From Streptomyces sp. TLI_053 (GTDB lineage Bacteria; Actinomycetota; Actinomycetes; Streptomycetales; Streptomycetaceae): a stretch of DNA of 64,000 nucleotides. The notes below the pieces were generated by a model, which was not told the origin of the DNA, did not search any database, and saw only the letters and a program-made list of their open reading frames with translations. The DNA lies in contig NZ_LT629775.1 of the NCBI RefSeq assembly GCF_900105395.1, forward strand, positions 1,178,001 through 1,242,000. The letters are read 5' to 3'. Positions 8,708-39,905 of the stretch are shown here, piece by piece. The position numbers were made by a program, and so were the translations under genes. Positions within the stretch are counted from its first letter, which is position 1, and the number at the start of each line of letters is the position of its first letter.

Positions 8708-8735
8708 AACCGGCAACCGGCAACCGGCAACCGGC
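8708..8735. repeat. 7-bp tandem repeat (AACCGGC x4)
   Basis: Four exact copies of AACCGGC lie in the intergenic space just downstream of the minus-strand gene that ends at 8747. The remaining gap (8506-8746) shows no coding frame. It could vary in copy number between strains. Confidence 0.85.
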
Positions 8736-8746
8736 CCGACGGGCGG

Positions 8747-9286: not shown

Positions 9287-9381
9287 AGGATTCCTCCTCG
9301 GACGGACGCAGTGAGTAGCGTCGCATGTTCGCAGGGTGGCGCGTCGAGGAAAAGCGGAATCCGGGGCCGCCCGGTGTCCGG

Positions 9382-18123: not shown

Positions 18124-18144
18124 GACGGCCGGACCACGGCCGTC
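18124..18144. terminator. bidirectional terminator hairpin
   Basis: GACGGCCG and CGGCCGTC flank a five-base loop between the convergent RICIN-CAP gene (stop 18109) and the DUF4240 gene (stop 18143). Confidence 0.65.
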
Positions 18145-18649: not shown

Positions 18650-18724
18650 GGTCGTACCGTTCCGTTCCGGATTCGGGTGGGTCGGCACCGATCCTGGCAC
18701 GGACCACCGACAACCGGACGGCGG

Positions 18725-19450: not shown

Positions 19451-19499
19451 CGGCGGGTCTCCGGTCGGGGTTCGGAAGGGTTCGGTCGGGACAGCTCCG

Positions 19500-20129
19500 T
19501 CAGGACGGCTCGGTCAGCACCGGCAGCAGCCCGAGGTGCCCGTACGGCGTGAGCGGGTCCAGCCCGACGTCCTCCCGGGGCGGCCCGCTGCGGGCCAGGG
19601 CCAGGGCGGCGGCGCGGTCCTTCGGCGAGGGGCCGGGCAGGGTGGCGCAGACGGCGGCGAGCACGTCCGCGTACGGCGTGCCGTGCTCGGTGAGGGCGAG
19701 CCGCAGCAGTTCCAGCGCGGGCCGGTGCTCGCGCAGCAGGGTGTCGTCGCCGGTGGCGGCGGTGAACTCCAGTACGGCGGGCAGGAAGTCGGGCAGGTCC
19801 TCGCCGGTGAACTCCAGGGCGTGCGCCCGGTAGGCGGCCTTGAAGCGCAGCAGCGCCGCGCCCCGCCGGCGGGTGTCGCCGTCGGTCCACCAGCTCAGGT
19901 GGAGGCTGTGCCGCTGCCGGAAGTCGAACACCTCGACGTACTGGCGGGCGAGTTCGCCGGGCGGGAGGCCGGCGGCGCGGCCGAGGAAGGCCCGCAGCGG
20001 CGCGGCGGCGGCGTGCCGGACCGGGGCCAGCAGCGCGGTCAGCTCCGTCGGCGGCGTGGTCCGGTCGGGGTAGCAGAGGCATTCGGCGGCGACCCGGCGC
20101 ACCACCGCCGCCGCCCCGTCGCCGCTCAC
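19500..20129 (-). CDS. narJ: nitrate reductase molybdenum cofactor assembly chaperone
   Basis: A 209-residue helical chaperone of the NarJ/TorD class. It binds the NarG N-terminus and helps insert the molybdenum cofactor and FS0 cluster before membrane docking; it is not part of the final enzyme. Recognisable parts are the early AECLCYPDR, the QYVEVFDFRQRHSLHLSWW signature and FLPAVLEFTA. The GTG start overlaps the narH stop (GTGA), so the two are coupled. The size matches actinobacterial NarJ proteins. Confidence 0.95.
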   Translation of the reverse strand: MSGDGAAAVVRRVAAECLCYPDRTTPPTELTALLAPVRHAAAAPLRAFLGRAAGLPPGELARQYVEVFDFRQRHSLHLSWWTDGDTRRRGAALLRFKAAYRAHALEFTGEDLPDFLPAVLEFTAATGDDTLLREHRPALELLRLALTEHGTPYADVLAAVCATLPGPSPKDRAAALALARSGPPREDVGLDPLTPYGHLGLLPVLTEPS

Positions 20130-24700: not shown

Positions 24701-25524
24701 GCGGCGTCCCACCAGTCCCCCGACTCGGGCACGTCGGTCTGGTCGCCGAACACCTGCGGGGAGGCGACCGGCAGGTCCGCGTACCAGTCGTAGAAGGAGA
24801 GCATCGGCGCGCCGATCAGCGCGTGGAAGCGGGCGCCGGCCGCGTGCGAGACCATCGACATCGCCGGGATCGGCGAGAACCCGGCGATCCGGTCCGGCCC
24901 GTACCGCTTCACGGTGTGCACGTGCGCGGCGGCGACGATCTCCACCGCCTCGTCCCAGCTCGTCCGCACCAGGCCGCCCTTGCCCCGGGCCCGCTGGTAG
25001 GAGCGGCGGCGCTCCGGATCGTCCTGGACGTCCGCCCAGGCGAGCACCGGGTCCCCCAGCCGGGCGAGCGCCTCCCGGTACAGCTCCAGCAGCACCCCGC
25101 GCACGTACGGGTGGCGGACCCGGGTGGGCGAGTAGGTGTACCAGGAGAAGGCGGCGCCGCGCGGGCAGCCGCGCGGCTCGTACTCGGGGCGGTCGGGGCC
25201 GACGGACGGGTAGTCGGTGGCCTGGGTCTCCCAGGTGATGATGCCGTCCTTGACGAAGACCTTCCAGCGGCAGGAGCCGGTGCAGTTGACGCCGTGGGTG
25301 GAGTACACGACCTTGTCGTGGCTCCAGCGGTCCCGGTAGAAGGAGTCGGAGTCCCGCCCGCCGGTGAGCCGGACGCTGTGCAGGTCGGGCGCCGGGGTTC
25401 CGGGGCGGAAGAACCGGCCCGCCCGCAGGAACGCGGCCCCCGGCTCGCCCGGAGCCGGGGCGCCGGTGCCGGCGTTGCCACCATCACTGCCGATACCGCC
25501 GGTGCCGCTGGTCGGCTCCCGCAC
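21733..25524 (-). CDS. narG: respiratory nitrate reductase alpha subunit (molybdopterin catalytic subunit)
   Basis: A 1263-residue catalytic subunit that reduces nitrate to nitrite on the cytoplasmic face using bis-MGD molybdenum. The FS0 ligands are His77, Cys81, Cys85 (THGVNCTGSC) and Cys120 (RGCPRG), each exactly 28 residues after the E. coli positions. Asp250 (FYDWYADLP) matches the molybdenum ligand Asp222 of E. coli. The GTG at 25524 is preceded by GGGAGGG and is preferred; ATG 25563 would add 13 residues. A Gly/Glu-rich low-complexity insert (LGGGGSGEDGGGDGGDG, from about residue 386) is an unusual surface loop. It is first in the narGHJI operon. No narK-type transporter is seen. Confidence 0.97.
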   Translation of the reverse strand: MREPTSGTGGIGSDGGNAGTGAPAPGEPGAAFLRAGRFFRPGTPAPDLHSVRLTGGRDSDSFYRDRWSHDKVVYSTHGVNCTGSCRWKVFVKDGIITWETQATDYPSVGPDRPEYEPRGCPRGAAFSWYTYSPTRVRHPYVRGVLLELYREALARLGDPVLAWADVQDDPERRRSYQRARGKGGLVRTSWDEAVEIVAAAHVHTVKRYGPDRIAGFSPIPAMSMVSHAAGARFHALIGAPMLSFYDWYADLPVASPQVFGDQTDVPESGDWWDAAYLMMWGSNVPVTRTPDAHWMAEARYRGQKVVAVSPDYADNTKFADEWMHPHPGTDAALALAMGHVILREFFVDRTTPFFDDYVRRFTDLPFLVTLTERDGGYVPAKFLRASDLGGGGSGEDGGGDGGDGVEGADWKLVVLDGATGRPAVPNGSLGFRWTASGEGRWNLDLQDVHPRLTLYGDEAATPVEVLLPRFDTDGGEHGQGLGGIVRRGVPALRLDGGALVTTVHDLLLAQYGVGRPGLPGRWPDSYQDADTPGTPAWQERHTSVPAAQVVRVAREFARTAEESGGRCMILMGAGTNHWFHSETIYRSFLALLTLTGCQGRNGGGWAHYVGQEKCRPFTGWATLAGATDWSRPPRQMIGTGWFFLHTDQWRYDTYPADVLASPLGTGRFRGLATVDLLARSARVGWMPSYPTFDRNPLDLADEARDLGRDPKEHVVAELRAGRLGFACEDPDEPANWPRVMTLWRANLLGSSAKGAEYFSKHLLGTHSSLRAREAGPEQRPRDVRWHPEAPEGKLDLLLSLDFRMTSSTLLSDVVLPAATWYEKHDLSSTDMHPFVHSFAPAVDPPWQARTDFDAFHAIAGRFSELAAEHLGVRHDVVATPFQHDTPGETAQPGGTDADWRDGDCEPVPGVTLPNLAVVERDYPAVAAKMAALGPLVEQLGLPVKGVVLRPDQEVEQLKARNGTARGGPADGRPLLDTAVKAADTVLALSGTTNGRLATQGFRYLERRTGRELAHLAAENEGRRVTYADTQAAPAPVVTSPEWSGSESGGRRYSPFTVNTEHLKPWHTLSGRQHFFVDHDWMHELGEALPVYRPPLDLRRLFGEPALGADGRAEVTVRYLTPHNKWSIHSEYQDNLFMLALSRGGQVVWMSVEDAAAIGVADNDWIEAVNRNGVVVARAVVSHRMPPGTVYMHHAQERTVNVPRAETGGKRGGIHNSLTRVLLKPTHLIGGYAQLSWAFNYLGPTGNQRDEVTVIRRRSQEVRY

Positions 25525-25685
25525 GTGAACACCCTCCCGATCCGGGCCGGACTGTGTGCCCATCGAAACCGCGCGGCCGCGGCACCGCACCCGGGGACGT
25601 CCCGTCGGGTGACCTGTCGCCCGGCCGCGGCCCGGTCCGGCGGGCCCGGCTGGCAGGACGCCCGCGCGGGCGGTGCGATGGGGTC

Positions 25686-27022: not shown

Positions 27023-27508
27023 TCAGTTCACGGCGTAGGTCACGTAGTAGACGGAGCCCTCGACGTCGGACTTGGCGAGTTTGGCGATATTTCCCCTCCC
27101 CTGCTCGTCCTCGCGGATCTGGACGGAGCCGAGCAGGTCGTCGCTGGACACGGAGTCGTAGTCCCAGAGCGAGAGGTTCTGGGCGAAGGAGACCGGAACG
27201 TCGATGCCCGGCTGGGCGGACTGGCCGGCCTGGATGCTGGTGGTCTGCTCGCCGCCGGGCCAGATGCTGCGGTCCAGGCCGCCGGCGGTGTCGGTGGTGA
27301 GGTACAGGTCGTCGGGGTCGGAGCGGGCGGTGTCGATCATCTGCACGGCCGAGGGGATGCCGCGCACGATGGACTCCAAGGACCCCAGGCCGAGCTCGTC
27401 CAGCGGAATGGACTCGGCGAGGTTGGCGATGGCTTCGTTGACCCCCACATCGGTACCGGTCGCGGCGTGCAGGCACCACACGTCCCGGATTGTCGCGGTC
27501 GCGGTCAT
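27023..27508 (-). CDS. small protein with C2-like calcium/lipid-binding motif
   Basis: A 161-residue protein with no signal peptide. The N-terminal half (~1-60) is helical (VNEAIANLAESIPLDELGLG). The C-terminal half is beta-rich and contains FAQNLSLWDYDSVSSDDLLG, which reads like the last calcium-binding loop of a C2 domain (DxDxxxxDDxxG), followed by a strand and VYYVTYAVN. C2 domains bind phospholipid or calcium; the call is mine from the motif only. The start ATG 27508 has AGGAGG upstream. It is divergent from the DUF6603-type operon across a 511-base gap and could be functionally tied to it. Confidence 0.7.
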   Translation of the reverse strand: MTATATIRDVWCLHAATGTDVGVNEAIANLAESIPLDELGLGSLESIVRGIPSAVQMIDTARSDPDDLYLTTDTAGGLDRSIWPGGEQTTSIQAGQSAQPGIDVPVSFAQNLSLWDYDSVSSDDLLGSVQIREDEQGRGNIAKLAKSDVEGSVYYVTYAVN

Positions 27509-28019
27509 GACGGCCTCCTGGGTCGACTTGATCGGGTCGGCTCTCATCGAGCGTCGAAAGGATCGAAAGGAGACGAATGACGGAATGCGACCATTGTCGC
27601 TCCGATCCGGGAACACGGTCCACTCCTCACGGTGACAAGTCCGAGGGGCGCAAAGAATCTCACGGAAAGTGTTGGAGCACCCGCGGGCTCGGGAATAGAG
27701 TGGGTCACATACCCGACAACTTTCCCTGCCGGGAGTTCTTTCCCGCAGGTCGACCCGCTGTTGAGGAGCTGGGTCCGGAATGTCCCGGACCATTGCCGTC
27801 GGGCCCGGAACCGGCGCTTCATCAGATCGGCAGCGCTTCGTCCCATCGGCGCGACCGATTCCCCTCGGGGGCGGTGCGGCATTCCACGGTCCGATCGGTG
27901 GCGCAGTGCCACCGGCGCGGCGTTCCCGCATCGATCACCATCCGTGGCACGGGCCGTGAATTGTCACTGCCCGTGATATTTCCCGGCCATTCTCCCGGAT
28001 TCGCCGCGAGGAGTCCGCC
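27509..28019. promoter_or_regulatory. long divergent intergenic region upstream of the DUF6603 operon
   Basis: 511 bases without a supported gene, clearly poorer in GC than the flanks. It should hold promoters for the C2-like gene (leftward) and the five-gene operon (rightward). A possible ECF-type promoter is GGAAT at 27692-27696 with CGAC 16-18 bases later; I could not find convincing -35/-10 boxes for the housekeeping sigma factor. GAGGAG just before the ATG at 28020 is the ribosome site. Confidence 0.4.
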
Positions 28020-28736
28020 ATGCCCCAGCTCAATCCCTTCCCCCACGACGGCGAGGGCGGACTCGGTCCGTCCGCCTCGGCCAAGGGCTGGCACCAGGGG
28101 TACGTCGCCGCGGTGAGTTCGCCGTCCGCACCGCCCCGGACCCCGCTGGTGCGCAGCACCGAATTCATGGACGCGTTCGAACTGGGCGCGGCGGCGGGCC
28201 GGGCGGACGGCCTGGCCGAGGGCTGGCGCTGGCGGTACTTCGGCGAGGACGCGCGGACCGGCGACGACACCGGGCAGGGACCGCAGCCGGCGCAGAGCCC
28301 CGCCGAGCCGGTGAACGCCGGGGAGGGCGGACCGGCGCGGGCGGACTACCCGCTGGCCTGGCACTGCGTGGGCGCGGCGGCGCTGCGGGTGCTGCTGGAG
28401 CAGTTCGCCCCGGGCTCCGACCGGGAGTTCCCCGGCCTGCGCCTGGACCGGGCCTGCGCCGACAAGGGCGTGCTCGGACTGTACCTGCCGGTCCGGCTGG
28501 TGCCCCGCGATCCCCCGGCCGAGCCGACCGGCGACCCGCTCGCCGATCAGGGGTACTGGCACGGCACCGCGACCGACTCGCTCGCCGACGCCGCGGCCGA
28601 GGGGCCGGACGGGCCCGACGCACCGGCCACCCGGGCGCCGGCCTTCCTCGGCCTGGTCCGCTACCGGCCCGCCGGGGAGCACGACTTCTGGGACGTCCTG
28701 CCGGCCGGAGGCCGGATGCCGCCGACGCGCGGCTGA
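28020..28736 (+). CDS. hypothetical protein, first gene of the DUF6603-type operon
   Basis: A 238-residue protein that I cannot assign to a named family. It begins with a disordered Pro/Gly/Ser stretch, then GYVAAVSSPSAPPRTPLVRS and the helix FMDAFELGAAAGRADGLAEG (~50-69). A linker rich in acidic residues and Pro follows, then a more compact part (~113-165, YPLAWHCVGAAALRVLLEQF). The end contains the conserved-looking FLGLVRYRPAGEHDFWDVLP. There is no signal peptide or membrane helix. It is followed 18 bases later by the DUF6603-like gene, so it is most likely co-transcribed. GAGGAG precedes the ATG. Confidence 0.8.
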   Translation: MPQLNPFPHDGEGGLGPSASAKGWHQGYVAAVSSPSAPPRTPLVRSTEFMDAFELGAAAGRADGLAEGWRWRYFGEDARTGDDTGQGPQPAQSPAEPVNAGEGGPARADYPLAWHCVGAAALRVLLEQFAPGSDREFPGLRLDRACADKGVLGLYLPVRLVPRDPPAEPTGDPLADQGYWHGTATDSLADAAAEGPDGPDAPATRAPAFLGLVRYRPAGEHDFWDVLPAGGRMPPTRG

Positions 28737-28754
28737 CGAGGAGCGAGGTGTGCC

Positions 28755-30707
28755 ATGGGCGTCCTTCCGGGGCTCGACCTGGAGAAACTGGCGGACGGTG
28801 TTCTCCCGGACACGCTGAAGATCGACCTGCCCCTGCCTCCGGTGCGGTTGCGCGGGCAGCTGGACCGCAAGGGCACCAAGGAGCTGTCCGGCGTGCTGAG
28901 CGCGGCGATGCCGGTCACCACGGTGACGGCGTTCGGTCAGATCTCGCTCGGCCGGCCGCCGGCGTTCATCGTGCTGATGGGCGCGACCTTCCCCGAGCCC
29001 GGGCTGCAGATCGGGCTGGGCTTCGCGGTCAGCGGCATCGGCGGGGTGGTGGGCGTCAACAAGGCGGTCGACCGGGACACGCTGCTGGCCTGCATCGCCG
29101 ACGGCACCGCCGGCGAACTGCTGTTCCCGCCCGACCCGGTGGAGGCCGCGCTGCGGGTGGTCCCGCGCCTGGCGTCGCTGTTCCCGACCGTTCCGGGGCG
29201 GCTCGTGGTCGGACCGATGTTCCGGATCTCCTGGGGCGGCCGGATGGTCGACCTGTCGGCGGCCGTGGTGGCGGAGCTGCCCGATCCGGTGCGGCTGTCG
29301 GTCCTCGGCATCCTGCGGGTGATGGTGCCCGATCCGGCGGCGCCGGTCATCGAGCTGAAGGCGACCTTCGCGGGCCAGTACGACACCGCCGAGCCGAGCG
29401 CCTTCCTGATGGCCTCGCTGACGGGTTCGCGGATGGCGGGCATCCCGCTCGACGGTGACGTCCTGGTGCTCAGCCGGGGCGGGGCCGACCCGCTCTTCGT
29501 GCTCAGCGCGGGCGGCTTCCACCCGGCGTTCCCGGTCCCGCGCGGGGTGCCGAAGCTGCACCGGCTGGCGATGGACCTCTCCCCCGCGCCGTGGCTCCAG
29601 CTGCGCTGCGAGGCGTACTTCGCGGTGACCAGCAACACCGTCCAGTTCGGGGCGAAGCTGTCCCTGGTCGCCGAGATCGCGGACTGCGGCCTGCGCGGGC
29701 AGTTCGCCCTGGACGTCCTGATCCACTTCAAGCCCCAGATGGCGTTCACCGCGTCGATGCGCGGCGCGCTGTCGGTCGAGGCGTTCGGCGAGACCCTGCT
29801 CGGCATCGCCTTCGAGCTGGTCCTGGAGGGCCCCACCCCCTGGCACGCGGTCGGCCGGGGCCGGATCAAGCTGTTCCTGTTCAAGGTGTCGTTCAACTTC
29901 GACCTGAGCTGGGGCGACGGGCCGCCCCCGCTGCCCACTGCCCGCGTCGACCTCGGCGGCGAGCTGGTCAAGGCGTTCGCGCAGCCGTCGGCGTGGAGCG
30001 TGCTGCCGCCGTCCGCCGCCGAACGCAGCCCGGTACTGCTCTCCCCGTCCGCGAACCGGCTGCTGGCCGAGGGGAGCCGGGTGCACCCGCACGGCCGGCT
30101 GGCGGCCCGCCAGCACGTGCTGCCGCTCGGGGTCGACATCGCGCGCTTCGGGAACGCGGCGGTCGACCCGCCGGAGCGGTGGGACATCACCGTCCCTCGG
30201 CTCGGCAAACAGGACGCCGAGGGCCCGGTCTCCGACTCGTTCGCGCCCGGGCAGTTCCTGGACCTGACCGAGGACCAGCAGCTGAGCACCGACGCCTACG
30301 CCCAGTACCGTTCGGGCGTCCGGCTCGCCCCCGACCTCTCGGGACCCGCCGACGCGGCCTTCGTCGGGGCGGAGCTCGGCTGGGAGACCAGGATCGTCCA
30401 GGACCCGGTGCCGATGCGCACCCACTTCCTGCGCATGGTCCGCTCCCACGCCCACGTCTCCGCCGAGCACGTGGCCGCCGCCGCCTCGATCCGCGACGCC
30501 CACTGGTGGCGGACCGCCGGGCCGGCGCTCCGGGTGGCGGCGGAACAGCCGCTCGCGGCGGTGTCCAGCTGGTCGATGACGCAGCTCACGGTCGCGGCCG
30601 CACCGCCCGGCGGCGGCACCGGGATACCGAACGCCGAACTGCGCGGCCTGCTGCGCGACCGCGCCGGGGTCCGGGTGGTGGAGGCCTGGGAGGCGAGACT
30701 CCGATGA
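28755..30707 (+). CDS. DUF6603-like protein
   Basis: A 650-residue protein whose middle (~60-400) resembles DUF6603. It has many amphipathic beta strands with the hallmarks VSGIGGVVGVNKAVDRD, GGFHPAFPVPRGVPKLHRLA, YFAVTSNTVQFGAKLSLVAE and LVLEGPTPWHAVGRGRIKLF. The alternating strand pattern suggests a large beta-sheet or barrel-like fold. No signal peptide is present, so it is probably cytoplasmic or carried by partners. The C-terminal ~230 residues are a separate, less conserved part that ends RDRAGVRVVEAWEARLR. It overlaps the next gene by four bases (ATGA). Function is unknown for the family. Confidence 0.75.
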   Translation: MGVLPGLDLEKLADGVLPDTLKIDLPLPPVRLRGQLDRKGTKELSGVLSAAMPVTTVTAFGQISLGRPPAFIVLMGATFPEPGLQIGLGFAVSGIGGVVGVNKAVDRDTLLACIADGTAGELLFPPDPVEAALRVVPRLASLFPTVPGRLVVGPMFRISWGGRMVDLSAAVVAELPDPVRLSVLGILRVMVPDPAAPVIELKATFAGQYDTAEPSAFLMASLTGSRMAGIPLDGDVLVLSRGGADPLFVLSAGGFHPAFPVPRGVPKLHRLAMDLSPAPWLQLRCEAYFAVTSNTVQFGAKLSLVAEIADCGLRGQFALDVLIHFKPQMAFTASMRGALSVEAFGETLLGIAFELVLEGPTPWHAVGRGRIKLFLFKVSFNFDLSWGDGPPPLPTARVDLGGELVKAFAQPSAWSVLPPSAAERSPVLLSPSANRLLAEGSRVHPHGRLAARQHVLPLGVDIARFGNAAVDPPERWDITVPRLGKQDAEGPVSDSFAPGQFLDLTEDQQLSTDAYAQYRSGVRLAPDLSGPADAAFVGAELGWETRIVQDPVPMRTHFLRMVRSHAHVSAEHVAAAASIRDAHWWRTAGPALRVAAEQPLAAVSSWSMTQLTVAAAPPGGGTGIPNAELRGLLRDRAGVRVVEAWEARLR

Positions 30708-33556
30708 GCGGCGACGACCTGGAGTTCGCGCCGTACCTGCAGAGCCCGCTGGCCGCGTCGATCGACCACACCGCCGTCGAACCCGACCTGCGGCCCACCT
30801 TCACCCTGTCCGGGCCCCGGAAACTGCCCGTCCAGGGCCCGAAGCTGCGGATGCTCGGCCCCGAGGGCGTGGTGGGCCTGGACACCCGGCACATCCTGCG
30901 CGTCGAACCGGTGCCCGGCAGCACCGACGTGGAGCCCAACTACCTGCCCTTCGTGGAGTTCGACCTGCCCGAGCTGCCCTGGCTGTTCACCCCGGCCGCC
31001 GCCGAGCACGAACGTCTGCGGCCCTGGCTGCAGCTGATCGTGGTGGAGGCCGCCGGGCACGCCGTCCGACCGGGCAACCCGCTGCCCGTCGTCGACGTCG
31101 GGATCGGCCTGCTGCCGCCGCTCGCCGACGCCTGGCAGTGGGCGCACATCCAACGGCCGGCCGGACAGCCGGGGCCGATGATCTCCCGGCTGCTCTGCCC
31201 GCGCCGGCTCCAGGGCAACACCGACTACCTGGCCTGCCTGGTGCCGTCCTTCCAGGGCGGAGTGACCGCCGGGCTCACCGGCGGCATCATCGAGATCGAC
31301 CAGCCGGGCGACGCCTGGCCGTTCCCCGGCCAGGACGTCTTCCGGCTGCCTGTGTACCACTCCTGGGGCTTCCGCACCGGCGAGGAGGGCGACTTCGAGC
31401 AGCTGGCGACCGCCGTGGTGCCGCTGCGGCCGGAGGAGGCCGGACTGCTGGGCGGGCGGACCGTCGACGTCACCCGGCCCTGGCTGCACGGCGATCCGCT
31501 CGCCCCCGGCGACCCGGCGGCCGGCCGGCAGACCGTCACCGTCCAGGGTGTCCTCACCCTGTTCGACCCGCCGCCGGGCACCGTCACCCGGGCCGCGCTG
31601 GACGACTTCAGGACCAGGGTCGCGGCACACATCGACCGCGGCACCGAGACCGAGCTCGCACCGCCGCTGTACGGCGGCCACCCGGTCGCCGCCCGGACCG
31701 TCGAACCGGGTGCGACGGGCTGGCTGGCCGAGCTCAACCTCGACCCGGAGCGCCGGATCGCGGCCGCCCTCGGCGGCGACTGGGTGCGGGAGAACCAGGA
31801 GTTCCTGATGGCCCGGGCCTGGGACCAGCTGGGCGCCGTCCGGGAGGCCAACCGCAAGCTCCAGGAGACCGCCTTCTGCACCGCCGTCTCCGACTCGCTG
31901 TACCGGCGCCACCTGCAGACCCTCTCCCCCGGCGAGCTGATGGCGGTGGCCGCGCCCGTCGGCGACCGGGTCCGCACCGACAGCGGACTGCCGCTGCGGA
32001 CCGAGGTCGCGGTCAGCCCGGCCCCGACCGCGATGGCCGACGCCGCCTACCACCGGCTGCTGCGCCGGCGCGGGCCGCTCGCCCGCCGCGCCTCCCTCGA
32101 CGGCGACAGCCTGGCCCGGCGCACGATGACCGGCGCGCTGCTGCCCCCGCTGCCCGTGCCGCTGGTGACCCGGCCCGGCACCTCGCCCGCCTTCGAGGCC
32201 GCGGCCGGCGACGCGTTCGCGGAACGCGTCGACGGTGCCCTGCACTCCGCCGCCACCCGGCACACCACCGGGATGCTGCGCACGATGGCCGCGGTGGCCC
32301 CGGCCGCGCTGGCCAACGGCTTCACGGACCAGGCCGGGGCGATCACCGCACTGCTCGCCCCCTCGATCGGGCGGATGGCGGGCGGCCAGGAGGGATTCGC
32401 CGCGGACTCGATGACCGCCGACGACCTGCTGACGTCGGAGCAGCTGTTCGACTCCGGGACGGTCGCGCCGCTCGTCGGCGACCTCACCGGCACGACGGAA
32501 GCGCTCCCGGACGGCTTCGGCATGACGCTCCCCGCCCCGTTCACCGTGCTGTCCGGCCAGGAGTCGATGACCGACGACCCCGGCAGCCAACTGCTCCAGT
32601 ACGGGGTGCCGATCGACCCGGACGCCTACCGGCAGCGACTGGTCGGCGCGCTCGACCCGACGCCGCTGCTGACCGCCCGGCTGGCGGACCGGATCACCGT
32701 GACCGGCGAATCGCTGGTCGCCCTGCCGGAACAGGTCACCGACCCGGTGATGGTCTGCCCGGACTTCCCCGCCGCGATGGCACTCGCGATCAAGGAGAGC
32801 GAACCCGACTGGTTCCTGCCCGGCATCGCCGCCGTCCCGGACGACCGGGCCGTCCTGCTGAAGGCCAACGGGCCGTTCATCGCCGCCTTCATGGTCGGCG
32901 CCAACGACGAGCTCAACCGGGAGATGCGCTGGCGCGAGTACCCCACCGACCTGCGCGGCAGCCCGTTCACCCACTTCTGGCCGCGCCCCGACGGCCTCGC
33001 CGACATCCCGCCGGTGCACGGCTGGGCCCCCGACGGCGCCCTCGGCAGCCACCTCGCCCTGGACGCCAACGACCTGGACGTGCTGCTGATCCGCGGCCGG
33101 CTGGTGCACCGCTACCCCGGCATGGTCGTGGCCGCCGTCCCGCCCGCCGCCGTCCAGGACCCCCTGCTCGCCCCGGACAGCTGGGTGGCGCCCGTCATGG
33201 TGCTGCCCGTCGACGAGCGGACCTGCGCCTACGCCTTCCAGCTGCCGTCCGGCCAGGACATCCACGACTGGTGGATCGTGCTCGCCGAGAACGGCCGACG
33301 GCTCCGGTTCGGCTACGACACCGCACCCGGCACCGGCCCCGGCATGAAGACCTGGGACGACCTCAACTGGGACCGGGTCCTCGTCGGCGGCTTCGCCTCG
33401 CTCGGCCGGCTGCCGGACGACCCTCCGGTGTCGGAGCGGGAGAACCCCCGCACCGCCGGGCGGAGCTGGAACTCCGCCGACGTCGCCCGGGTCACCCTGC
33501 AACGGCCGTTCCGTCTGCTCCGCACCGCCCGCAGCCTGATGGGAGAAGCCCCGTGA
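30704..33556 (+). CDS. large hypothetical protein of the DUF6603-type operon (950 aa)
   Basis: A 950-residue soluble protein of unknown function. It opens with DLEFAPYLQSPLAASIDH and a beta-rich region with VEPNYLPFVEFDLPELPWLF. The most striking part is near residues 735-760, where NDELNREMRWREYPTDLRGS is followed by PFTHFWPRPDG. I recall this WREYPTDxRG pattern from uncharacterised proteins in other bacteria that carry DUF6603 genes. Later, VLPVDERTCAYAFQLPSGQD and DIHDWWIVLAENGRRLRFGY are also well defined. No catalytic motif, signal peptide or membrane helix is visible. ATGA overlap before and GTGA overlap after show tight translational coupling. Confidence 0.8.
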   Translation: MSGDDLEFAPYLQSPLAASIDHTAVEPDLRPTFTLSGPRKLPVQGPKLRMLGPEGVVGLDTRHILRVEPVPGSTDVEPNYLPFVEFDLPELPWLFTPAAAEHERLRPWLQLIVVEAAGHAVRPGNPLPVVDVGIGLLPPLADAWQWAHIQRPAGQPGPMISRLLCPRRLQGNTDYLACLVPSFQGGVTAGLTGGIIEIDQPGDAWPFPGQDVFRLPVYHSWGFRTGEEGDFEQLATAVVPLRPEEAGLLGGRTVDVTRPWLHGDPLAPGDPAAGRQTVTVQGVLTLFDPPPGTVTRAALDDFRTRVAAHIDRGTETELAPPLYGGHPVAARTVEPGATGWLAELNLDPERRIAAALGGDWVRENQEFLMARAWDQLGAVREANRKLQETAFCTAVSDSLYRRHLQTLSPGELMAVAAPVGDRVRTDSGLPLRTEVAVSPAPTAMADAAYHRLLRRRGPLARRASLDGDSLARRTMTGALLPPLPVPLVTRPGTSPAFEAAAGDAFAERVDGALHSAATRHTTGMLRTMAAVAPAALANGFTDQAGAITALLAPSIGRMAGGQEGFAADSMTADDLLTSEQLFDSGTVAPLVGDLTGTTEALPDGFGMTLPAPFTVLSGQESMTDDPGSQLLQYGVPIDPDAYRQRLVGALDPTPLLTARLADRITVTGESLVALPEQVTDPVMVCPDFPAAMALAIKESEPDWFLPGIAAVPDDRAVLLKANGPFIAAFMVGANDELNREMRWREYPTDLRGSPFTHFWPRPDGLADIPPVHGWAPDGALGSHLALDANDLDVLLIRGRLVHRYPGMVVAAVPPAAVQDPLLAPDSWVAPVMVLPVDERTCAYAFQLPSGQDIHDWWIVLAENGRRLRFGYDTAPGTGPGMKTWDDLNWDRVLVGGFASLGRLPDDPPVSERENPRTAGRSWNSADVARVTLQRPFRLLRTARSLMGEAP

Positions 33557-36500
33557 CCAGCGAGATCGCCGCCGCGCACCGCGCCGTCAGTGACGCCCGG
33601 ATCGCCCTGGACTGGTCGAGGACCGGACTCGCCGGCTACGAGAAGCGGGTACTCGCCCAGGAGACCGGTCTCGAGGCCGAGCACCTGGCCGCCGCCCAGG
33701 AGGCCGACGCCGCCCAGATCCGCCACCAGCAGGCCCGCGAGGCCTACCGCGACCTGGCGACCGCCGAGCCGCCGCTCTGGGCCCAGGACGGCTCCGACCC
33801 GCTGGTGCTCCTCCCGTTACGGCTGGAGACCGTGTACCGGGGCCTCGGCGGCCCCGAACCGCAGCTGTGGCTCCGGGCCTACCCCGACGACATCCACGTC
33901 GACTCCCACGAGACCGGCCTCACCGCCGAGGAGCGCACCGCCACCGAGGCCTACTGGCAGGAGGTCTGGGCCGCCGGGCCGGACGAGGAGGGCCGCGCGG
34001 ACGCCTGGAACACCCTCGTCGCCACCGTCGGCCCCGGCCGGGCCTGCTGGGCCGTCCGCGTCCTGCACCCGCAGGGCCCCCGCCCCGGGACGCGGACCCC
34101 ACCGGACGCGATCGCGCCCTCCCCGGAGCCCTGGGCCGCCGAACCGACCGTCGCCGACAGCACGTTCACCCGCGCCGCGCACAGCTACGTGCTGCCCGAC
34201 CGGCTGGTGTTCTCCGGTTACGAGACCACCGGTGACGGCCAGATCGGCCTGCTCTGGCGCCAGGAGGGCGAAGCGATCGACGCGGAGCTCGACGTCGGCC
34301 CGGCCCCGGGCCGACCGGTGCCACCGCGCTGGCTCGGCGACTTCGACGAGGCCGTACGGGTCGGCATGGGCGTCCGGGTGCCGCTGGCCGGGCTGCGCAC
34401 CGACTTCAGCCTGGTCACCGTGACCGGCGTGCGCGGCGGCGCCTCCGCCGACACCGCACAGCTGCTCAGCACCCTGCTGGAGGCCCACCGCTGCACCGAC
34501 GGCCTGGCCGTGCTGCCCACCGGCACCCCCACCAACAACACCGACGCCACCCGCTCGGCCTGGCACCCGCGCACCCCACCCGCGCCGCCGGACCGCGTCG
34601 ACGAGCAGCAGGCCGCCCTCACCCCCGACAGCACCCAGGCGGCGGCGCGGGCCGCGACCGCCCTCGGCCGGAGCGCCGCCGGCGTCCTCGCCGAGGTCAC
34701 CGACGGACTCGCCGACGACGAGCACGAGCTGCTGACCCTGCTCCAGACCGCGGCCGGCGCCTTCTCCGCCGCCTCCAGCAACTGGCGCACCCTCGAGGGC
34801 ACCACCCTGCCCGACCTCACCTTCCTGGTCTCGCACTACATCCACCACGTCCGCGGCCGGGGCCTGCTGCCGACCCTGCGGGTGGGCAACCAGCCGTACG
34901 GCCTGCTGCCCGTCACCTCGCTCGACCTGTGGCACGGCAGCGAGGTGGACCTGCGGATCCTCAACCACATCTCCGGCTTCCGGACCCTGGTCGAGTCGCA
35001 GGCCTTCCGCTCCCCCGGAGTCGGCGCGGGCGGCGACCCGGACCAGGTGATCAACGACCTGCTGCACCGGCTGCCCGCCTCCCGGCGCCTGCGGTACATG
35101 CAGCAGGACATCCTCGACGCGCCGTTCGAGCCGCCGCCGGACACCCCGATCGGGACCGTCCCGCACGACAGCCGGTTCACCTGGGCGCTGCCGCCCTCGC
35201 CGGACTTCGTCCCCTTCCCGGTGGAGTTCCTGTGCGACCAGCGGCCGACCCCCGAGATGGTGGAGCTCGCCCGGGCCCGACCGCTCCGCTTCATGTGGGG
35301 CTTCTGGCAGCAGGTGCTCCCCGGGCTCGCCTCGGGGCAGGGGGCCTCGCCGGAGCTCGTCGCCCGGATGCAGGCGCTGTCCGCCTCCACGGAGGCGATC
35401 AGCACCGGCCGGCTGGGGCTCTTCTACCACTACGCCACCAGCGTGATGTTCACCTACGCCTTCCACGTGGGCGAATTCCTCCGGGCCGGTGCGCCGGTGC
35501 CGGCGCCCGGGGTCGGGCTGAAGGACGGCGAGCTCGTCGCCGCCGCCGGCTTCGCGCCGCAGTTCCTCGACTGGCTCTCCCTCGCGTTCGAACAGCTCGC
35601 CGCCGCGGAGGACCTGTCGCTCGTCACCCCGCCCCCGCCCGGCCCGTCGGAGCCGCCCCCGCCCGAGGGAGCGGACCTGCCGTACGCCGACACTCCGCGC
35701 CTGGAACTGCTGCTCTGCGAGGCGCTGGACACCCAGACCCACCGGCTCGACGCGTGGATGTCCTCGGTCGCCCACGCCCGCCTCGCCAGGACCAGGGCCA
35801 CCCGACCCGACGGCACCCATCTGGGGGCGTACGGCTGGGTGGCCGACCTCCACCCGAGCGCGGCGTCGCTGCCCCCGGAGGAACCGCTGCCCGGTGACGA
35901 ACCGGGGCCGGTGCCCGAGGACGGCGAGGCAGGTGAGGCCGGTGAACCCGGTGGCTCCGGTGAGCCGCAGACCAACGACGGCTACCTGCTCGCCCCGTCC
36001 CTGCACCACGCCGTCACCGCCGCCGTGCTGCGCTCGGGCTGGCTCAGCCACACCGACCGCCAGGCCTTCGCCGTCGACCTCCGGGCCGCCCGGGTCCGCC
36101 GCGCGCTGGCCGTCGTCGACGGCGTCCGCTCCGGCCAGAGCCTCGGTGCCCTGCTCGGCTACCGGTTCGAACGCGGCCTGCACGACAACGGGCTCGACGC
36201 CCTCGTCGCACCGGTCCGGGAGGCCTTCCCGACGCCCCGGCTCGTCGACCCGAGCGTCCCCGGCAGCGACGAGGCCAGGACCGCGATCGCGGCCCGCGAC
36301 GTCGTCGACGGACTCGCACTGCTGGCCGACTGGCGCGCCCACGGCCAGCAGCTGCAGGACGTCCTCGGCAACCTTCCCCCCGAGGACCTGCCCCTGCTCG
36401 ACGCGGCCACCGCCCTGGTGCTGGAACTCGACGACACCCTCGACGCGGTAGGCGACCTGCTGCTCGCCGAGAGCGTGCACCAGCTGGTAGCCGGCAGCCC

Positions 36501-38070
36501 GCTGCGGGCCGCTTCCTCGGCCGACGGCATCACCCGCGGCGACCGCCTCCCCCAGGACTTCGAGGTGATCCGCACCCCGCGCGCCGCCGTCGCCCTGACC
36601 CACCGGGTCGCGGTGCTCGCGCCCCGGGCCCCCGTTCCCGGCTGGGACGCGACCCGGCCGCTCGCCCAGCTGGAGCCCGCCGTCGAACGCTGGTGCGAGG
36701 CCCGGCTCGGCGACCCCGGCGGCTGGCGGTTCGACTTCGGCGACCCGGCCGCACCGCTCACCCTCACCCTCGCCGACCTCGGCATCTGCGCACTCGACGC
36801 GGTCCTGGGCGCCGGGCCGGCGGGCGACCGTGACACCGACCCCGCCCAACAGGACACCGCCCTCGCCCGCCGCCTGCTGCGCCGGGCAAGCGCCCTGGCC
36901 GGCGCAGCCACCACCCCGCCCGTCACGCCGGCCGGCGCCGCCCGGTTCGCCGAACTGCGGCTGCTCTGCAACGCGCTGGCGGGCGTGCTCGCCGGGGCCG
37001 AACCGCTGCTCACCTCCCACCTCGACCAGGGGAGCGGCGACGACCGGGCCGGCGCCGACCTGACCGGCCTCGCCGCCCGGGTGGAGACCTGGCACAGCGC
37101 CACCACCAGCGCCCTGGCCAACCTGGTCGAACAGGTGAAGGTGCTGCCGGGCCTGGCCGACACGGTCTCCCGCACCCTGGACAGCCTCGCCGATCTCGGG
37201 ATCACCTCCGCCTACAGCCTCGGCCCGCCGACCGACGAGGCCGGGATCGCGGAGCTGCGGAACCAGGCCGCCACCGTCCTCAACCGCTTCGCCGCCGACC
37301 CGCTCGCCCCGCTGCCCGGCCCCCCGCCCGCGGAACCGACCGCGGCACTCGGCTGGGTCACCGCCGTCACCGCCGCCGTCTCCTCGGCACTCGCCGGCAC
37401 CCTGCCCGTCCTCACCGAGCTGCGCCTCGGCGGCACCCCGGCGGGCGACGCGCTCACCGCCGGGCCGCCGGAGGGCGCGGACGAGGACGGCACCGGCACC
37501 TGGCTGGTGCAGATGGAACGCGTCCGGCCGGCCGTCCGCGCCCTCGACGACGCGCTCGCCGCCGCAGAGGTCCTGGCCGACACCCCGCCCAGCGGAACGA
37601 CCGTCGTCCAACTCCCCGCCGGACAGCCCTGGATCGCCCGCGGCCCGACCCCCGTGCCGTCCAGGACCAGGCCCGCGGCCCGCCACAGCGCGCTGCTGCG
37701 CACCGACGGCGCGCCCGATCCGGACCGGGTCGCCGGACTCCTGATCGACTCCTGGACCGAGTCCGTGCCCGAGCCGCCCCCCGCTCCTCCCGCCGACGCC
37801 CCACCGGCCGAGGGCGACGCCGAACCCGCCGTCGAGGAACTGGGCGGGCTGGCCTTCCACTACAACCAGCCCGACGCCCGCGCCCCGCAGGCCCTGCTGG
37901 TCGCGGTGCCGCCCGACCCGCTGCGCGGCTGGCGGATGGAGGACGTGCACGCGGTCGTCGAGGAGACCTACGCCGTCGCCCGGATCCGCGGGCTGGACCT
38001 CAACGACCTCACCGAGTTGCGCGGGCTGCTGCCCGTCCAGACCAAGACCCCGCCGCACCAGCTGGTCTGA
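33553..38070 (+). CDS. very large hypothetical protein of the DUF6603-type operon (1505 aa)
   Basis: A 1505-residue protein starting at a GTG that overlaps the previous stop. Residues ~5-70 are a probable coiled coil (Ala/Glu/Gln/Arg heptads). Then comes VLLPLRLETVYRGLGGPEPQ with LWLRAYPDDIHVDSHE (~85-120), and near 436-456 GLLPTLRVGNQPYGLLPVTS, which are conserved-looking landmarks. An acidic Pro/Gly/Glu linker lies at ~780-810. The helical second half contains several LAG/LLAD-type repeats and ends in a compact LRGWRMEDVHAVVEETYAVA segment with 'AFHYNQPDARAPQALL' before it. No enzyme motif or export signal was found. The size and coiled coil suggest a structural or scaffold role, which is inference. 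Confidence 0.8.
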   Translation: MTSEIAAAHRAVSDARIALDWSRTGLAGYEKRVLAQETGLEAEHLAAAQEADAAQIRHQQAREAYRDLATAEPPLWAQDGSDPLVLLPLRLETVYRGLGGPEPQLWLRAYPDDIHVDSHETGLTAEERTATEAYWQEVWAAGPDEEGRADAWNTLVATVGPGRACWAVRVLHPQGPRPGTRTPPDAIAPSPEPWAAEPTVADSTFTRAAHSYVLPDRLVFSGYETTGDGQIGLLWRQEGEAIDAELDVGPAPGRPVPPRWLGDFDEAVRVGMGVRVPLAGLRTDFSLVTVTGVRGGASADTAQLLSTLLEAHRCTDGLAVLPTGTPTNNTDATRSAWHPRTPPAPPDRVDEQQAALTPDSTQAAARAATALGRSAAGVLAEVTDGLADDEHELLTLLQTAAGAFSAASSNWRTLEGTTLPDLTFLVSHYIHHVRGRGLLPTLRVGNQPYGLLPVTSLDLWHGSEVDLRILNHISGFRTLVESQAFRSPGVGAGGDPDQVINDLLHRLPASRRLRYMQQDILDAPFEPPPDTPIGTVPHDSRFTWALPPSPDFVPFPVEFLCDQRPTPEMVELARARPLRFMWGFWQQVLPGLASGQGASPELVARMQALSASTEAISTGRLGLFYHYATSVMFTYAFHVGEFLRAGAPVPAPGVGLKDGELVAAAGFAPQFLDWLSLAFEQLAAAEDLSLVTPPPPGPSEPPPPEGADLPYADTPRLELLLCEALDTQTHRLDAWMSSVAHARLARTRATRPDGTHLGAYGWVADLHPSAASLPPEEPLPGDEPGPVPEDGEAGEAGEPGGSGEPQTNDGYLLAPSLHHAVTAAVLRSGWLSHTDRQAFAVDLRAARVRRALAVVDGVRSGQSLGALLGYRFERGLHDNGLDALVAPVREAFPTPRLVDPSVPGSDEARTAIAARDVVDGLALLADWRAHGQQLQDVLGNLPPEDLPLLDAATALVLELDDTLDAVGDLLLAESVHQLVAGSPLRAASSADGITRGDRLPQDFEVIRTPRAAVALTHRVAVLAPRAPVPGWDATRPLAQLEPAVERWCEARLGDPGGWRFDFGDPAAPLTLTLADLGICALDAVLGAGPAGDRDTDPAQQDTALARRLLRRASALAGAATTPPVTPAGAARFAELRLLCNALAGVLAGAEPLLTSHLDQGSGDDRAGADLTGLAARVETWHSATTSALANLVEQVKVLPGLADTVSRTLDSLADLGITSAYSLGPPTDEAGIAELRNQAATVLNRFAADPLAPLPGPPPAEPTAALGWVTAVTAAVSSALAGTLPVLTELRLGGTPAGDALTAGPPEGADEDGTGTWLVQMERVRPAVRALDDALAAAEVLADTPPSGTTVVQLPAGQPWIARGPTPVPSRTRPAARHSALLRTDGAPDPDRVAGLLIDSWTESVPEPPPAPPADAPPAEGDAEPAVEELGGLAFHYNQPDARAPQALLVAVPPDPLRGWRMEDVHAVVEETYAVARIRGLDLNDLTELRGLLPVQTKTPPHQLV

Positions 38071-38120
38071 TCCGCCCGGCCCGCGAGGGCCCGCGGCCCG
38101 GAAGCCCGTCAGGAGGAGCC

Positions 38121-39905
38121 ATGCCGACGATGTTCCGGTACGAGCCGGTACCCCGTGACGTCGGCGTCGAGGAGGCGCTGGCGGCCCGGATCGGCGACGC
38201 CGCCCATCTGCTCGCCCGCCAGTACGCGTTCGGCGAGTTCGCCGGCGACGACGCCGCCTCGCCGGTCGACGTCGCACTCGCGCAGGAGATCCATCTGCTG
38301 GACGGCTGGCGGCCCGGCAGCTCCGGGACCGAAGGAGAAGGCGAGGGCGAAGGAGAAGGAGAAGGCGACGGCGAGGGCGAGGGCGAGGGCGGCTGGCAGC
38401 CGTACCGGCCGGGCCGGATGGTGCTGGAGGAACTCGTCGAGCAGGAGCCCACGACCGGACCCGACGCCAGGCTGACGCTGGCCGCCGGCCTGCGCTGGCG
38501 CCGCGAACTCGCCTCGGCCGGCCTCGCCGCGCTGCTCCCCGCGTTCGCCACCACCTGCCCCTGCCCCGTCGACGGGCCGCTGGCGCCCGCCCCGCTCGCC
38601 GCCGCCGTCCGGAGCCGGCTGCCCGACCCCGTCGCGCTGGCGCCGTGGCTGGCCAGGCTCGTGGACCGGGACGAGACCGCGGCGAAGGAGTTCGGCGCGG
38701 CCGCCCCCGACCAGGAGGCCCTGGCCGGCGCGGCGGCGCGCTGGCTGGACTGGTGGGCGCCGCGTGCGCCGGACGGGGCGCCCGACGGCGCCGCCCCCGC
38801 ACCGCCCGCGCCCCCCGCCGCCTGGAACCCCAACCGCCTCGAATACGCCTTCGCGGTGCGCTCCTCCACCGTCCCCGAGCTCGAACTGCGGGCCCAGGAG
38901 TACCCGGGCGGCCACCTGGACTGGTGGGCCGTCGACGCCCTGCCCGCCGACATCCCGGTCACCGAGGCCGCCGTGACGCGCGAACAGCGCGCCGTCGTCC
39001 CCACCCCGGCGATCTTCGGCGGCATGCCCGCCTCCCGCTACTGGGAGATGGAGGACGCCAGGATCAACTTCGGCGCCGTGGACACCAGCCCCGCCGACCT
39101 CGGACGCCTGCTGCTGATCGCCTTCACCACGGTGTACGGGAACGACTGGTTCTGCTGCCCGCTGCCGAGCCCGGTGGGCTCGCTCAGCCGGGTCGTGCAC
39201 TGCTCGGTCACGGATGTCTTCGGCGGCGCGACGGTGCTCTCCCACGCCGCCCGGGAGGACCCCGAGTGGAACCTCTTCGGCCTCGGCGAGGACCGCGGCG
39301 GCGGGGCCATGGGCGGCGGCGCCGGGGACGGCACCGAACCACCGCCCTCCCCGTGGTTCTACCGGGCCGCCGCGCTGCCCGCCGGCCTGGAGAGCCCGCC
39401 CGACGAGTCCGTGCTGCTGCTGCGCGACGAGGCGGCGAACCTCGCCTGGGCGGTCGAGGAGACCGTCGGCGACCTGGCCGGCGAGCCGCTGGACCGCTAC
39501 GCCCGCTGGGTGGCGGCCCTCCCGCCCCGCCCGACCCCCGAACCCGGCGACCCGCCCGCCGACCGGTACCTGCTCGCCACCGAGGTCCCGGGCCACTGGT
39601 ACCCGCTGGCTCCCCAGCCGGTCGACCCGGCCGCCCCGGAGCAGATCCGGCTGCTGCTCGCCGGTCTGGTCCGCGACGAGAACACCCCGGCGCGCCCGCT
39701 CGGCCGCCTGCTCGGGGAGCAGCAGTGGCTGTTCGAGGAGGAGGTCCCGCGCTCCGGCGTCCGGGTGGAGCGCAGCCGCCAGTACACCCGCTGGCACGAC
39801 GGCTCCGCCCACGCCTGGTCGGCCCGGCGCAAGGTCAGCGGCACCGGCTCGGGCTCCAGCGGGCTGCGCTACGACGTGCTGGAGCCCCCGGCCGACGAGG
39901 CGTGA
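38121..39905 (+). CDS. hypothetical protein with (Glu-Gly)n tract, last gene of the DUF6603-type operon (594 aa)
   Basis: A 594-residue protein starting 50 bases after the previous gene, with GGAGGAG as ribosome site. The start FRYEPVPRDVGVEEALAARI leads to helices HLLARQYAFGEFAGDDAAS and a nearly pure Glu-Gly run at ~73-90. A second domain (~300-380) has the landmarks MPASRYWEMEDARINFGAVD, LGRLLLIAFTTVYGNDWFCC and LPSPVGSLSRVVHCSVTDVF. The C-terminal region is RQYTRWHDGSAHAWSARRK-like and basic. I recall similar proteins beside DUF6603 genes elsewhere but no function. No signal peptide or membrane segment is seen. Confidence 0.8.
   Translation: MPTMFRYEPVPRDVGVEEALAARIGDAAHLLARQYAFGEFAGDDAASPVDVALAQEIHLLDGWRPGSSGTEGEGEGEGEGEGDGEGEGEGGWQPYRPGRMVLEELVEQEPTTGPDARLTLAAGLRWRRELASAGLAALLPAFATTCPCPVDGPLAPAPLAAAVRSRLPDPVALAPWLARLVDRDETAAKEFGAAAPDQEALAGAAARWLDWWAPRAPDGAPDGAAPAPPAPPAAWNPNRLEYAFAVRSSTVPELELRAQEYPGGHLDWWAVDALPADIPVTEAAVTREQRAVVPTPAIFGGMPASRYWEMEDARINFGAVDTSPADLGRLLLIAFTTVYGNDWFCCPLPSPVGSLSRVVHCSVTDVFGGATVLSHAAREDPEWNLFGLGEDRGGGAMGGGAGDGTEPPPSPWFYRAAALPAGLESPPDESVLLLRDEAANLAWAVEETVGDLAGEPLDRYARWVAALPPRPTPEPGDPPADRYLLATEVPGHWYPLAPQPVDPAAPEQIRLLLAGLVRDENTPARPLGRLLGEQQWLFEEEVPRSGVRVERSRQYTRWHDGSAHAWSARRKVSGTGSGSSGLRYDVLEPPADEA
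38333..38391 (+). repeat. in-frame GGCGAG/GGAGAA hexanucleotide microsatellite
   Basis: About nine imperfect copies of a 6-bp unit (GGCGAG, GGAGAA) encode the Glu-Gly run in the last gene of the DUF6603-type operon. Changes in copy number would keep the frame, because the unit is a multiple of three. Confidence 0.85.

What the first reader, a model, noticed from the sequence alone, without database searches (positions are those of the whole stretch)
27023..39905. Uncharacterised five-gene operon of giant proteins with a DUF6603-like member and a divergent C2-like protein
Five plus-strand genes (238, 650, 950, 1505 and 594 aa; start-stop overlaps between genes 2-3 and 3-4, an 18-base gap before gene 2 and a 50-base gap before gene 5) have no catalytic, membrane or export signals that I can see. 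Only the second resembles a known family (DUF6603). Landmarks such as WREYPTDLRG (gene 3), RVGNQPYGLLPVT (gene 4) and VYGNDWFCCPLPSPVGSLSR (gene 5) look conserved. The coupling suggests one multi-protein assembly, possibly a large particle, matrix or conflict complex. A small C2-motif protein across a 511-base low-GC gap may link it to membrane or calcium. The functional idea is speculation; the gene arrangement is seen directly.
Basis: partly seen in the sequence, partly recalled or inferred. Interest (0 to 1): 0.85.

Follow-up and report, generated by a model that had tools for sequence, protein, structure and literature searches.

The report
Four-gene platform with swappable enzymes
Four large proteins of unknown function are encoded together, in the same order, in many bacteria and some archaea, often beside an interchangeable enzyme gene, so they look like an undescribed machine for packaging or delivering enzymes.

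Summary
The five-gene arrangement is real. Genes 2-5 (DUF6603; 950, 1505, 594 aa) are a conserved quartet. Of 262 relatives in a GTDB scan the best 80 were examined: 70 carry all four families, 69 in order on one strand, from Actinobacteria to Cyanobacteria and haloarchaea. In 296 genomes of the phylum not chosen for it, the families co-occur far beyond chance.

The gene just upstream varies. Of 61 such genes, 35 fall in hydrolase groups, 11 are WD40 propellers, 15 are by-eye or unassigned. One of 61 has a signal-peptide-like start, against 58 of 393 controls. Sister quartets carry different enzymes. A 113-aa domain shared by trypsin-like and subtilase partners occurred only at quartets in 12 genomes.

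The DUF6603 model is an amphipathic sheet resembling porins and ApoB.

In the window the gap before gene 1 holds a decayed remnant of a probable cell-wall enzyme gene that is intact in relatives.

Best explanation: a cytosol-assembled platform carrying a swappable effector; delivery is inferred. Gene 1 and the C2-like gene are lineage-specific.

The parts
28020..28736 (+). gene 1 (238 aa), lineage-specific accessory gene of unknown function
   Evidence: no Pfam; 2 of 70 genus genomes
28755..30707 (+). gene 2, DUF6603 protein (650 aa); predicted amphipathic beta-sheet, residues about 17-386
30704..33556 (+). gene 3 (950 aa), core family; helical middle between two Ig/FN3-like pieces (about 58-229 and 714-947, weak matches)
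   Evidence: family
33553..38070 (+). gene 4 (1505 aa), core family, holds RVGNQPYGLLPVT
38121..39905 (+). gene 5 (594 aa), core family, holds VYGNDWFCCPLPSPVGSLSR
30704..30707 (+). 4-base start/stop overlap of genes 2 and 3
33553..33556 (+). 4-base start/stop overlap of genes 3 and 4
27854..27983 (+). decayed remnant of a probable cell-wall enzyme gene that is intact upstream of the quartet in L060, L062 and L063
   Evidence: DNA 74% over 124 bases with L060 (E 7e-16); 32 residues 56% with the L062 protein, 35.0 bits against at most 31.6 for 200 shuffles
27023..27508 (-). divergent 161-aa protein, C2-like below threshold; lineage-specific neighbour, not shown to belong

Best explanation
Genes 2-5 encode a conserved four-protein platform that is made in the cytosol and carries one exchangeable effector, often encoded just upstream. 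The effector is most often a hydrolase predicted to attack proteins, lipids, phosphate esters or cell wall. Shown: the quartet, its order, the variable slot, partner turnover on nearly the same core, near-absence of signal-peptide-like starts, and a quartet-restricted domain on two kinds of protease. Inferred: that this domain docks the enzyme, that the four proteins hold it, and that the assembly reaches a target cell (antagonism) by release on lysis or a membrane-active step; in that picture the DUF6603 sheet is the membrane- or lipid-contacting part. The window copy has an intact quartet, gene 1 in the slot, and only the remnant of a probable cell-wall enzyme gene, so it may now be unarmed or use another partner.
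For: Order and coupling: 69 of 80 loci ordered on one strand; gene 2-3 gap median -4 in 69 loci. Co-occurrence in genomes not chosen for it, own genome left out (n = 295): genes 3 and 5 in 7 and 6, both in 5, Fisher p 7e-9. Slot: 50 of 76 loci with family 2 have a same-strand gene within 60 nt upstream (gene-1 relatives not counted), 19 touching or overlapping. Families of slot genes; control set. Catalytic motifs: HExxH 10 of 11 M64, GDSG 10 of 10 trypsin-like, 4 of 4 subtilases, 5 of 7 PhoD-like. Swaps between sisters: L097 trypsin-like / L105 subtilase, L096 M64 / L124 subtilase, L081 M64 / L083; at least 24 changes over 58 labelled rows. Shared domain: 11 matches in 12 genomes, all 11 at quartets. 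Signal-peptide-like starts 1 of 61 against 58 of 393, p 0.002. Window clade: peptidoglycan-binding or M23 neighbours in L060, L061, L062, L063 and an enzyme-gene remnant in the window and L061.
Against: No delivery step, particle or target has been seen. No immunity-like small gene recurs (5 of 61 slots have a small coupled upstream neighbour). 11 of 61 slot genes are WD40 propellers, 11 unassigned, 4 assigned only by eye. 26 of 76 loci have no counted slot gene. The shared domain is in 12 of 15 proteins of the trypsin-like cluster and 2 of 4 subtilases, and was not found in M64 or PhoD-like partners; 10 of the 11 genome matches are rows of the model itself. Partner classes are also more clustered on the tree than shuffled labels (36 changes against a mean of 54.8), so much is inherited. 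Hydrophobic 19-residue windows occur in 14 of 92 family-2 and 23 of 95 family-3 proteins, about as in controls (75 of 393), so membrane contact of some members is open. Lack of signal peptides also fits an intracellular role. The window has no intact enzyme recognised next to the quartet.
Confidence: 0.5

Rival explanations
1. An intracellular defence or cell-death system: the quartet senses infection or damage and frees the hydrolase inside the producer.
For: Swappable proteases, a caspase-domain gene and an AvrRpt2-like peptidase gene just downstream of L136, phospholipase-D-like and Exo_endo_phos neighbours, few signal peptides; a known conflict system uses trypsin and subtilisin domains (PMC7159879, passage read).
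Against: No NTPase or sensor domain found in genes 1-5 by Pfam, no PADLOC match; peptidoglycan-binding domains on several partners point outside the cytosol.
Confidence: 0.25
2. A lipid-handling particle: the DUF6603 sheet wraps or carries lipid, ApoB-like, and the partners act on what it carries.
For: Strand alternation 3.32 against 1.43 shuffled, 0 of 2000; ApoB100 chains at Foldseek ranks 2, 6, 7 and 27, none below E 1e-3; alpha/beta hydrolase and PLD-like partners.
Against: Most classified hydrolase partners are proteases; porin-type barrels match as well or better.
Confidence: 0.12
3. An enzyme scaffold for ordinary degradation (processing or scavenging), without conflict.
For: Broad range of hydrolase families across many phyla.
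Against: Few signal peptides, so no usual export; partner class changes between sisters, more like effector turnover.
Confidence: 0.1

Closest known systems
Type VI / extracellular contractile injection effectors
   Same: Exchangeable phospholipases, peptidases, peptidoglycan hydrolases and pore-formers without signal peptides, and domains that route effectors (recalled; for the WHIX domain the start of the abstract of PMC12135965 was seen)
   Different: Genes 2-5 have no match to phage-tail families in PHROGs and gene 3 none in the viral fold library. The one sheath match in the own genome is 7.4 Mb away.
Polymorphic toxin systems (PMC3482391, passages read)
   Same: Constant part with a variable toxin part
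   Different: The variable part is mostly a separate gene; no recurrent small immunity-like gene.
NTP-dependent ternary conflict systems, incl. MoxR-vWA-beta-propeller (PMC7159879, passages read)
   Same: Propellers; trypsin and subtilisin domains
   Different: No NTPase found in genes 1-5. A MoxR ternary system lies elsewhere in this window.
Pfam DUF6603 (PF20248)
   Same: Gene 2 belongs to it
   Different: No function known; 0 papers in the held open library for 'DUF6603' or 'PF20248'.
Type-2 DUF6603 loci (L058, L142-L144)
   Same: DUF6603 gene followed by a gene with weak gene-3 similarity
   Different: In L058 the gene after that is unlike genes 4 and 5 by hhalign.

Membership tests
DUF6603 (PF20248) | Match above the gathering score | tested here: met
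   286.5 bits against 27
Contractile injection system / T6SS | Tail tube, sheath, baseplate or spike proteins in the operon | tested here: inconclusive
   No Pfam, NCBIfam or PHROGs match of that kind for genes 1-5; folds of genes 4 and 5 were not predicted; sheath match of this genome is 7.4 Mb away
Contractile injection system / T6SS | Contractile particle seen by microscopy | not testable with these tools
   -
Polymorphic toxin system | Constant trafficking part and variable toxin domain in one polypeptide | tested here: inconclusive
   Partner is mostly a separate gene; trypsin-like and subtilase partners share one domain; one very long gene 2 (L132, 2710 aa) has no same-strand upstream neighbour
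Polymorphic toxin system | Adjacent immunity gene | tested here: not met
   Small gene (under 200 aa) coupled to the partner in 5 of 61, and within 60 nt after gene 5 in 3 loci, one of them a cut gene; own gene caller, so very small genes can be missed
NTP-dependent ternary conflict system | NTPase (MoxR, STAND) in the operon | tested here: not met
   No NTPase family among Pfam matches of genes 1-5 at E up to 1
Tc (ABC) toxin complex | TcA/TcB/TcC domains (recalled) | tested here: inconclusive
   No such Pfam match for genes 1-5; no structure comparison for genes 4 and 5
Outer-membrane beta-barrel | Signal peptide and an outer membrane in the host | tested here: not met
   0 of 92 family-2 proteins with a signal-peptide-like start (crude screen); hosts include Streptomycetaceae and haloarchaea, without a Gram-negative outer membrane by general knowledge
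Outer-membrane beta-barrel | Closed barrel fold | tested here: inconclusive
   Z 14.2 but rmsd about 10 A over 257-263 residues; no Foldseek E below 1e-3

The most novel reading that the evidence does not exclude
A new kind of effector-delivery machine, shared by bacteria and archaea, in which a DUF6603 beta-barrel inserts into or contacts the target membrane, genes 3-5 form a cage around a signal-less hydrolase or pore-former, and a small docking domain lets catalytic modules be swapped.
Probability: 0.22. Interest if true: 0.95.

Novelty: categorically new. Interest (0 to 1): 0.8.

Why it matters
If right, it is an undescribed effector platform that crosses the bacteria-archaea divide. DUF6603 matched none of 14 well-known control genomes, so work on those organisms could hardly have met it. 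It turns an anonymous DUF into a testable machine, and the exchangeable hydrolase slot would be a source of antimicrobial enzymes and of modular docking parts.

Tried and rejected
Phage origin: P0003 and A2 found no relative in viral contigs. The one 'phages' hit (MT835531) is a high-GC contig whose other genes look bacterial by eye, so I treat it as mislabelled. The viral fold library gave no match for gene 3 (best E 0.14); gene 2 was not searched there. Solved structures by sequence: only coiled-coil and designed proteins for the helical N-terminus of the longer DUF6603 proteins (lowest E 5e-05), none for genes 3 and 5, best E 0.33 for gene 4. Gene 3 fold: best Z 5.5, Ig/FN3-like pieces only. 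Homology of gene 5 with genes 3 and 4: none convincing; genes 3 and 4 were not compared. Of seven neighbour proteins of L041, L062 and L063 tried against the window, one gave a match below E 0.01 (E 1e-4), which one search shows to be a real remnant; the 308-aa peptidoglycan-binding protein of L041 and its alpha/beta hydrolase left no trace (best E 1.1 and 2.9). Paper searches listed no title that describes this quartet; only listings and starts of abstracts were seen, except passages of PMC7159879 and PMC3482391. Subscription papers and preprints are not covered.

Limits. Genes in loci were called by my own script (codon scores), so some starts are wrong (the enzyme gene of L060 was called too short) and some odd long genes may be false. 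The classes CHAT-like, papain-like and 'hydrophobic', and the cell-wall role of the 262-aa L062 protein, rest on recalled motifs; that protein has only a sub-threshold SH3_3 match. The PhoD label rests on a sub-threshold match of L050 (23.6 bits against 27), DUF7800 in L130 and clustering. L039/L061, L040/L059, L041/L060 and L042/L066 are the same places fetched twice; exact duplicates were removed. Ten loci (L039-L042, L048, L049, L053, L054, L056, L057) and gene-3 pieces under 600 aa were left out of the tree, where 31 of 89 rows carry no label and the PG label of L060 and L061 uses a gene that is not in the slot. That tree is a fasttree with long branches. Only 80 of 262 relatives were examined. 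Of the ten loci without all four genes, eight end at or near a contig edge; L104 holds gene 3 by the scan itself but my caller missed it; L098 lacks a called gene 2; L066 has all four but genes 4-5 inverted. One search shows 25 of 53 families and 25 of 152, so rarer families are not all visible; S8 also matched 2 of 61 control genes.

Full report
What is there. The window (74.5% GC) lies in a 9.9 Mb genome; its quartet is nearest to those of Kitasatospora purpeofusca, Streptomyces sp. NRRL F-6131 and Kitasatospora indigofera (L061, L059, L060). Against these relatives dN/dS is 0.30-0.52 for genes 2-5, 0.40 for gene 1 and 0.17 for the divergent gene. Gene 2 is a DUF6603 protein; the other genes match nothing above cut-off in Pfam, and nothing convincing in NCBIfam, PADLOC or PHROGs.

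One system. Gene 3 was found in 12 of 70 genomes of the genus and 9 of 396 of the phylum, the window's own included in both. Where the fetched stretch is long enough, genes 2-3-4-5 lie together. A scan of one genome per 84,980 species gave 262 relatives, of which the best 80 were kept; they include Actinobacteria, Acidobacteria, Proteobacteria, Bacteroidetes, Cyanobacteria, Chloroflexi, Verrucomicrobia, Planctomycetes and haloarchaea. Profiles built from these loci find all four families in 70 of 80, in order on one strand in 69; the gap between genes 2 and 3 has a median of -4. Those loci were chosen by gene 3, so I also searched one sample of 296 phylum genomes with DUF6603, gene 3 and gene 5 apart: 9, 8 and 7 genomes match, and genes 3 and 5 share 6. 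Without the window's own genome the overlaps have Fisher p of 7e-9 (3/5), 2e-10 (2/3) and 2e-8 (2/5). Exceptions: G168 is a marginal gene-3 hit (E 7e-4); G330's gene-3 hit is weak and belongs to a type-2 locus; G275's gene-5 hit is a 53-residue piece on another contig; G338 has gene-5 pieces on a 3.2 kb contig; G315 and G273 have DUF6603 without gene 3 at that sensitivity. Plasmids carry gene 3 too: 13 records, five from Streptomyces (three of one species) and four from haloarchaea.

The variable slot. Of 76 loci with gene 2, 50 have a same-strand gene within 60 bases upstream (gene-1 relatives not counted), 19 of them touching or overlapping. Over named and unnamed loci I collected 61 such genes. 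By Pfam match, clustering and motifs they are: M64 peptidase 11, WD40 propeller 11, trypsin-like 10, PhoD-like 7, subtilase 4, CHAT/caspase-like by eye 3, an unassigned 651-673-aa group 3, hydrophobic (possible pore-former, by eye) 2, M14 1, M23 1, PLD 1, papain-like by eye 1, and 6 unassigned; 35 of 61 are in hydrolase groups without the by-eye ones. Near-copies are included (five Nitrosomonas rows). A control of 61 random genes from the same flanks hits 152 families; M64 is not among the 25 shown, while subtilase matches 2 and Kelch 5, the latter most likely the propeller gene that sits between genes 2 and 3 in one clade. Catalytic motifs are kept in most members of the classes tested. Further partners seen nearby: alpha/beta hydrolase, SLT transglycosylase, peptidoglycan-binding proteins, Exo_endo_phos, caspase C14, AvrRpt2-like C70, ferritin-like, sub-threshold DyP.

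Few export signals, and swapping. One of 61 slot proteins has a signal-peptide-like start against 58 of 393 control neighbours (p 0.002); families 2-5 have 0 of 92, 2 of 95, 1 of 95 and 0 of 87, by a crude rule of mine. The same screen finds hydrophobic 19-residue windows in 14 of 92 family-2 and 23 of 95 family-3 proteins, about as often as in controls (75 of 393). On a gene-3 tree the partner classes need at least 24 changes over 58 labelled rows. Well supported sister swaps are L097 (trypsin-like) with L105 (subtilase), both cyanobacterial at about 0.15 changes per column, L096 (M64) with L124 (subtilase), and L081 (M64) with L083 (CHAT-like by eye). Classes are nevertheless more clustered than shuffled labels (36 changes with the unlabelled group, mean 54.8 shuffled), and the WD40 partners are one group, so partners are inherited for a time and then replaced. 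The tree is a quick one with long branches; deep counts are unsure.

A candidate docking domain. A 113-residue domain lies in 12 of 15 proteins of the trypsin-like cluster (the other three are short second-upstream genes of Nitrosomonas) and in 2 of 4 subtilases. In 12 whole genomes with quartets its profile matches 11 places in nine; all 11 coordinates fall on genes at quartets and none elsewhere. Ten of these are rows of the model, so the informative part is the absence elsewhere. It has no Pfam match above cut-off. A domain shared by two protease folds and confined to this neighbourhood is the best evidence that partner and quartet work together; docking itself is inference.

Structures. 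DUF6603 (pLDDT 81.5, pTM 0.62) has about 20 strands between residues 20 and 386 with strong alternation of greasy and polar residues. Its best structural matches are porin-type barrels (Z 14.2, rmsd about 10 A over 257-263 residues) and ApoB100, with no Foldseek E below 1e-3. It may be an open or closed barrel-like sheet, and which face is greasy is unknown. Gene 3 (pLDDT 81.1, pTM 0.67) has weak Ig/FN3-like pieces around a helical middle and no convincing relative.

The window copy. Its quartet is intact. L060, L062 and L063 have, upstream of the quartet, an intact gene for a protein of up to 262 aa that looks like a cell-wall peptidase by recalled motifs, with a sub-threshold SH3_3 domain. 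The window's 511-base gap matches that gene of L060 at DNA level (74% over 124 bases, E 7e-16) and the L062 protein over 32 residues with an in-frame stop (35.0 bits; best of 200 shuffled queries 31.6); L061 shows the same decayed piece. So the partner gene here appears to have decayed before window and L061 parted. L061 keeps a peptidoglycan-binding gene downstream; L060 has that gene too, plus a hydrolase upstream; L059 has no close same-strand neighbour. Gene 1 is found in L060, L062 and L063 among the 80 loci, before or after the quartet. The C2-like family is found in L061 and in L063, where it lies just upstream of the enzyme gene, and as a 25-residue match in the L060 genome. Both look like clade accessories.

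Second kind. The same genome has another DUF6603 locus (L058), with relatives L142-L144. The next gene shows weak similarity to gene 3 (profile E 1e-6 to 4e-17 in L142-L144, none at 0.01 in L058, where hhalign gives 64%), while the gene after it in L058 is unlike gene 4 or 5. DUF6603 thus serves at least two related arrangements.

Mechanism and novelty. The facts fit a platform assembled in the cytosol that carries a replaceable effector; antagonism by delivery is my most likely purpose, with self-directed defence as the main rival. It lacks the NTPase of ternary conflict systems and the recurrent immunity gene of polymorphic toxins, and shows no profile match to injection-system or Tc proteins (inconclusive, since genes 4 and 5 were not folded). 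No paper in the held open library contains DUF6603 or PF20248. I call it categorically new with the reservation that function is inferred and closed literature was not searched.

Noticed in passing
window 5806-15765, minus strand: A MoxR-vWA-beta-propeller ternary conflict system (bpMoxR, bpX5, bpX6 by Pfam, plus a sub-threshold RING-like match), with similar genes near the two nearest quartets by eye.
   Followed up: partly
L058 (G000:C1:664001-684000) and L142-L144: A second, type-2 DUF6603 arrangement in the same genome and others, with different neighbours (one upstream protein in L143 has a sub-threshold metallo-beta-lactamase match).
   Followed up: partly
L045, L047, L048, L092, L096, L102, L111, L124: A gene of 381-395 aa sits between genes 2 and 3 in these loci; Kelch propeller by Pfam where sampled.
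   Followed up: partly
L066 / L042: Genes 4 and 5 are inverted relative to 2 and 3, the only strand exception among 70 full loci.
   Followed up: no
MT835531.1 (L139): A record labelled as bacteriophage from human faeces holds quartet genes and otherwise bacterial-looking genes; probably mislabelled.
   Followed up: yes
window 18143-25563, minus strand: Genes that look like a respiratory nitrate reductase cluster (read by eye), not seen at that place in the stretches read of the two nearest relatives.
   Followed up: no
L136 (Sulfuriferula): A caspase-domain gene and an AvrRpt2-like peptidase gene directly downstream of a quartet.
   Followed up: no
L063 3244-4472: A relative of the window's C2-like gene lies just upstream, same strand, of the probable cell-wall enzyme gene.
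   Followed up: partly
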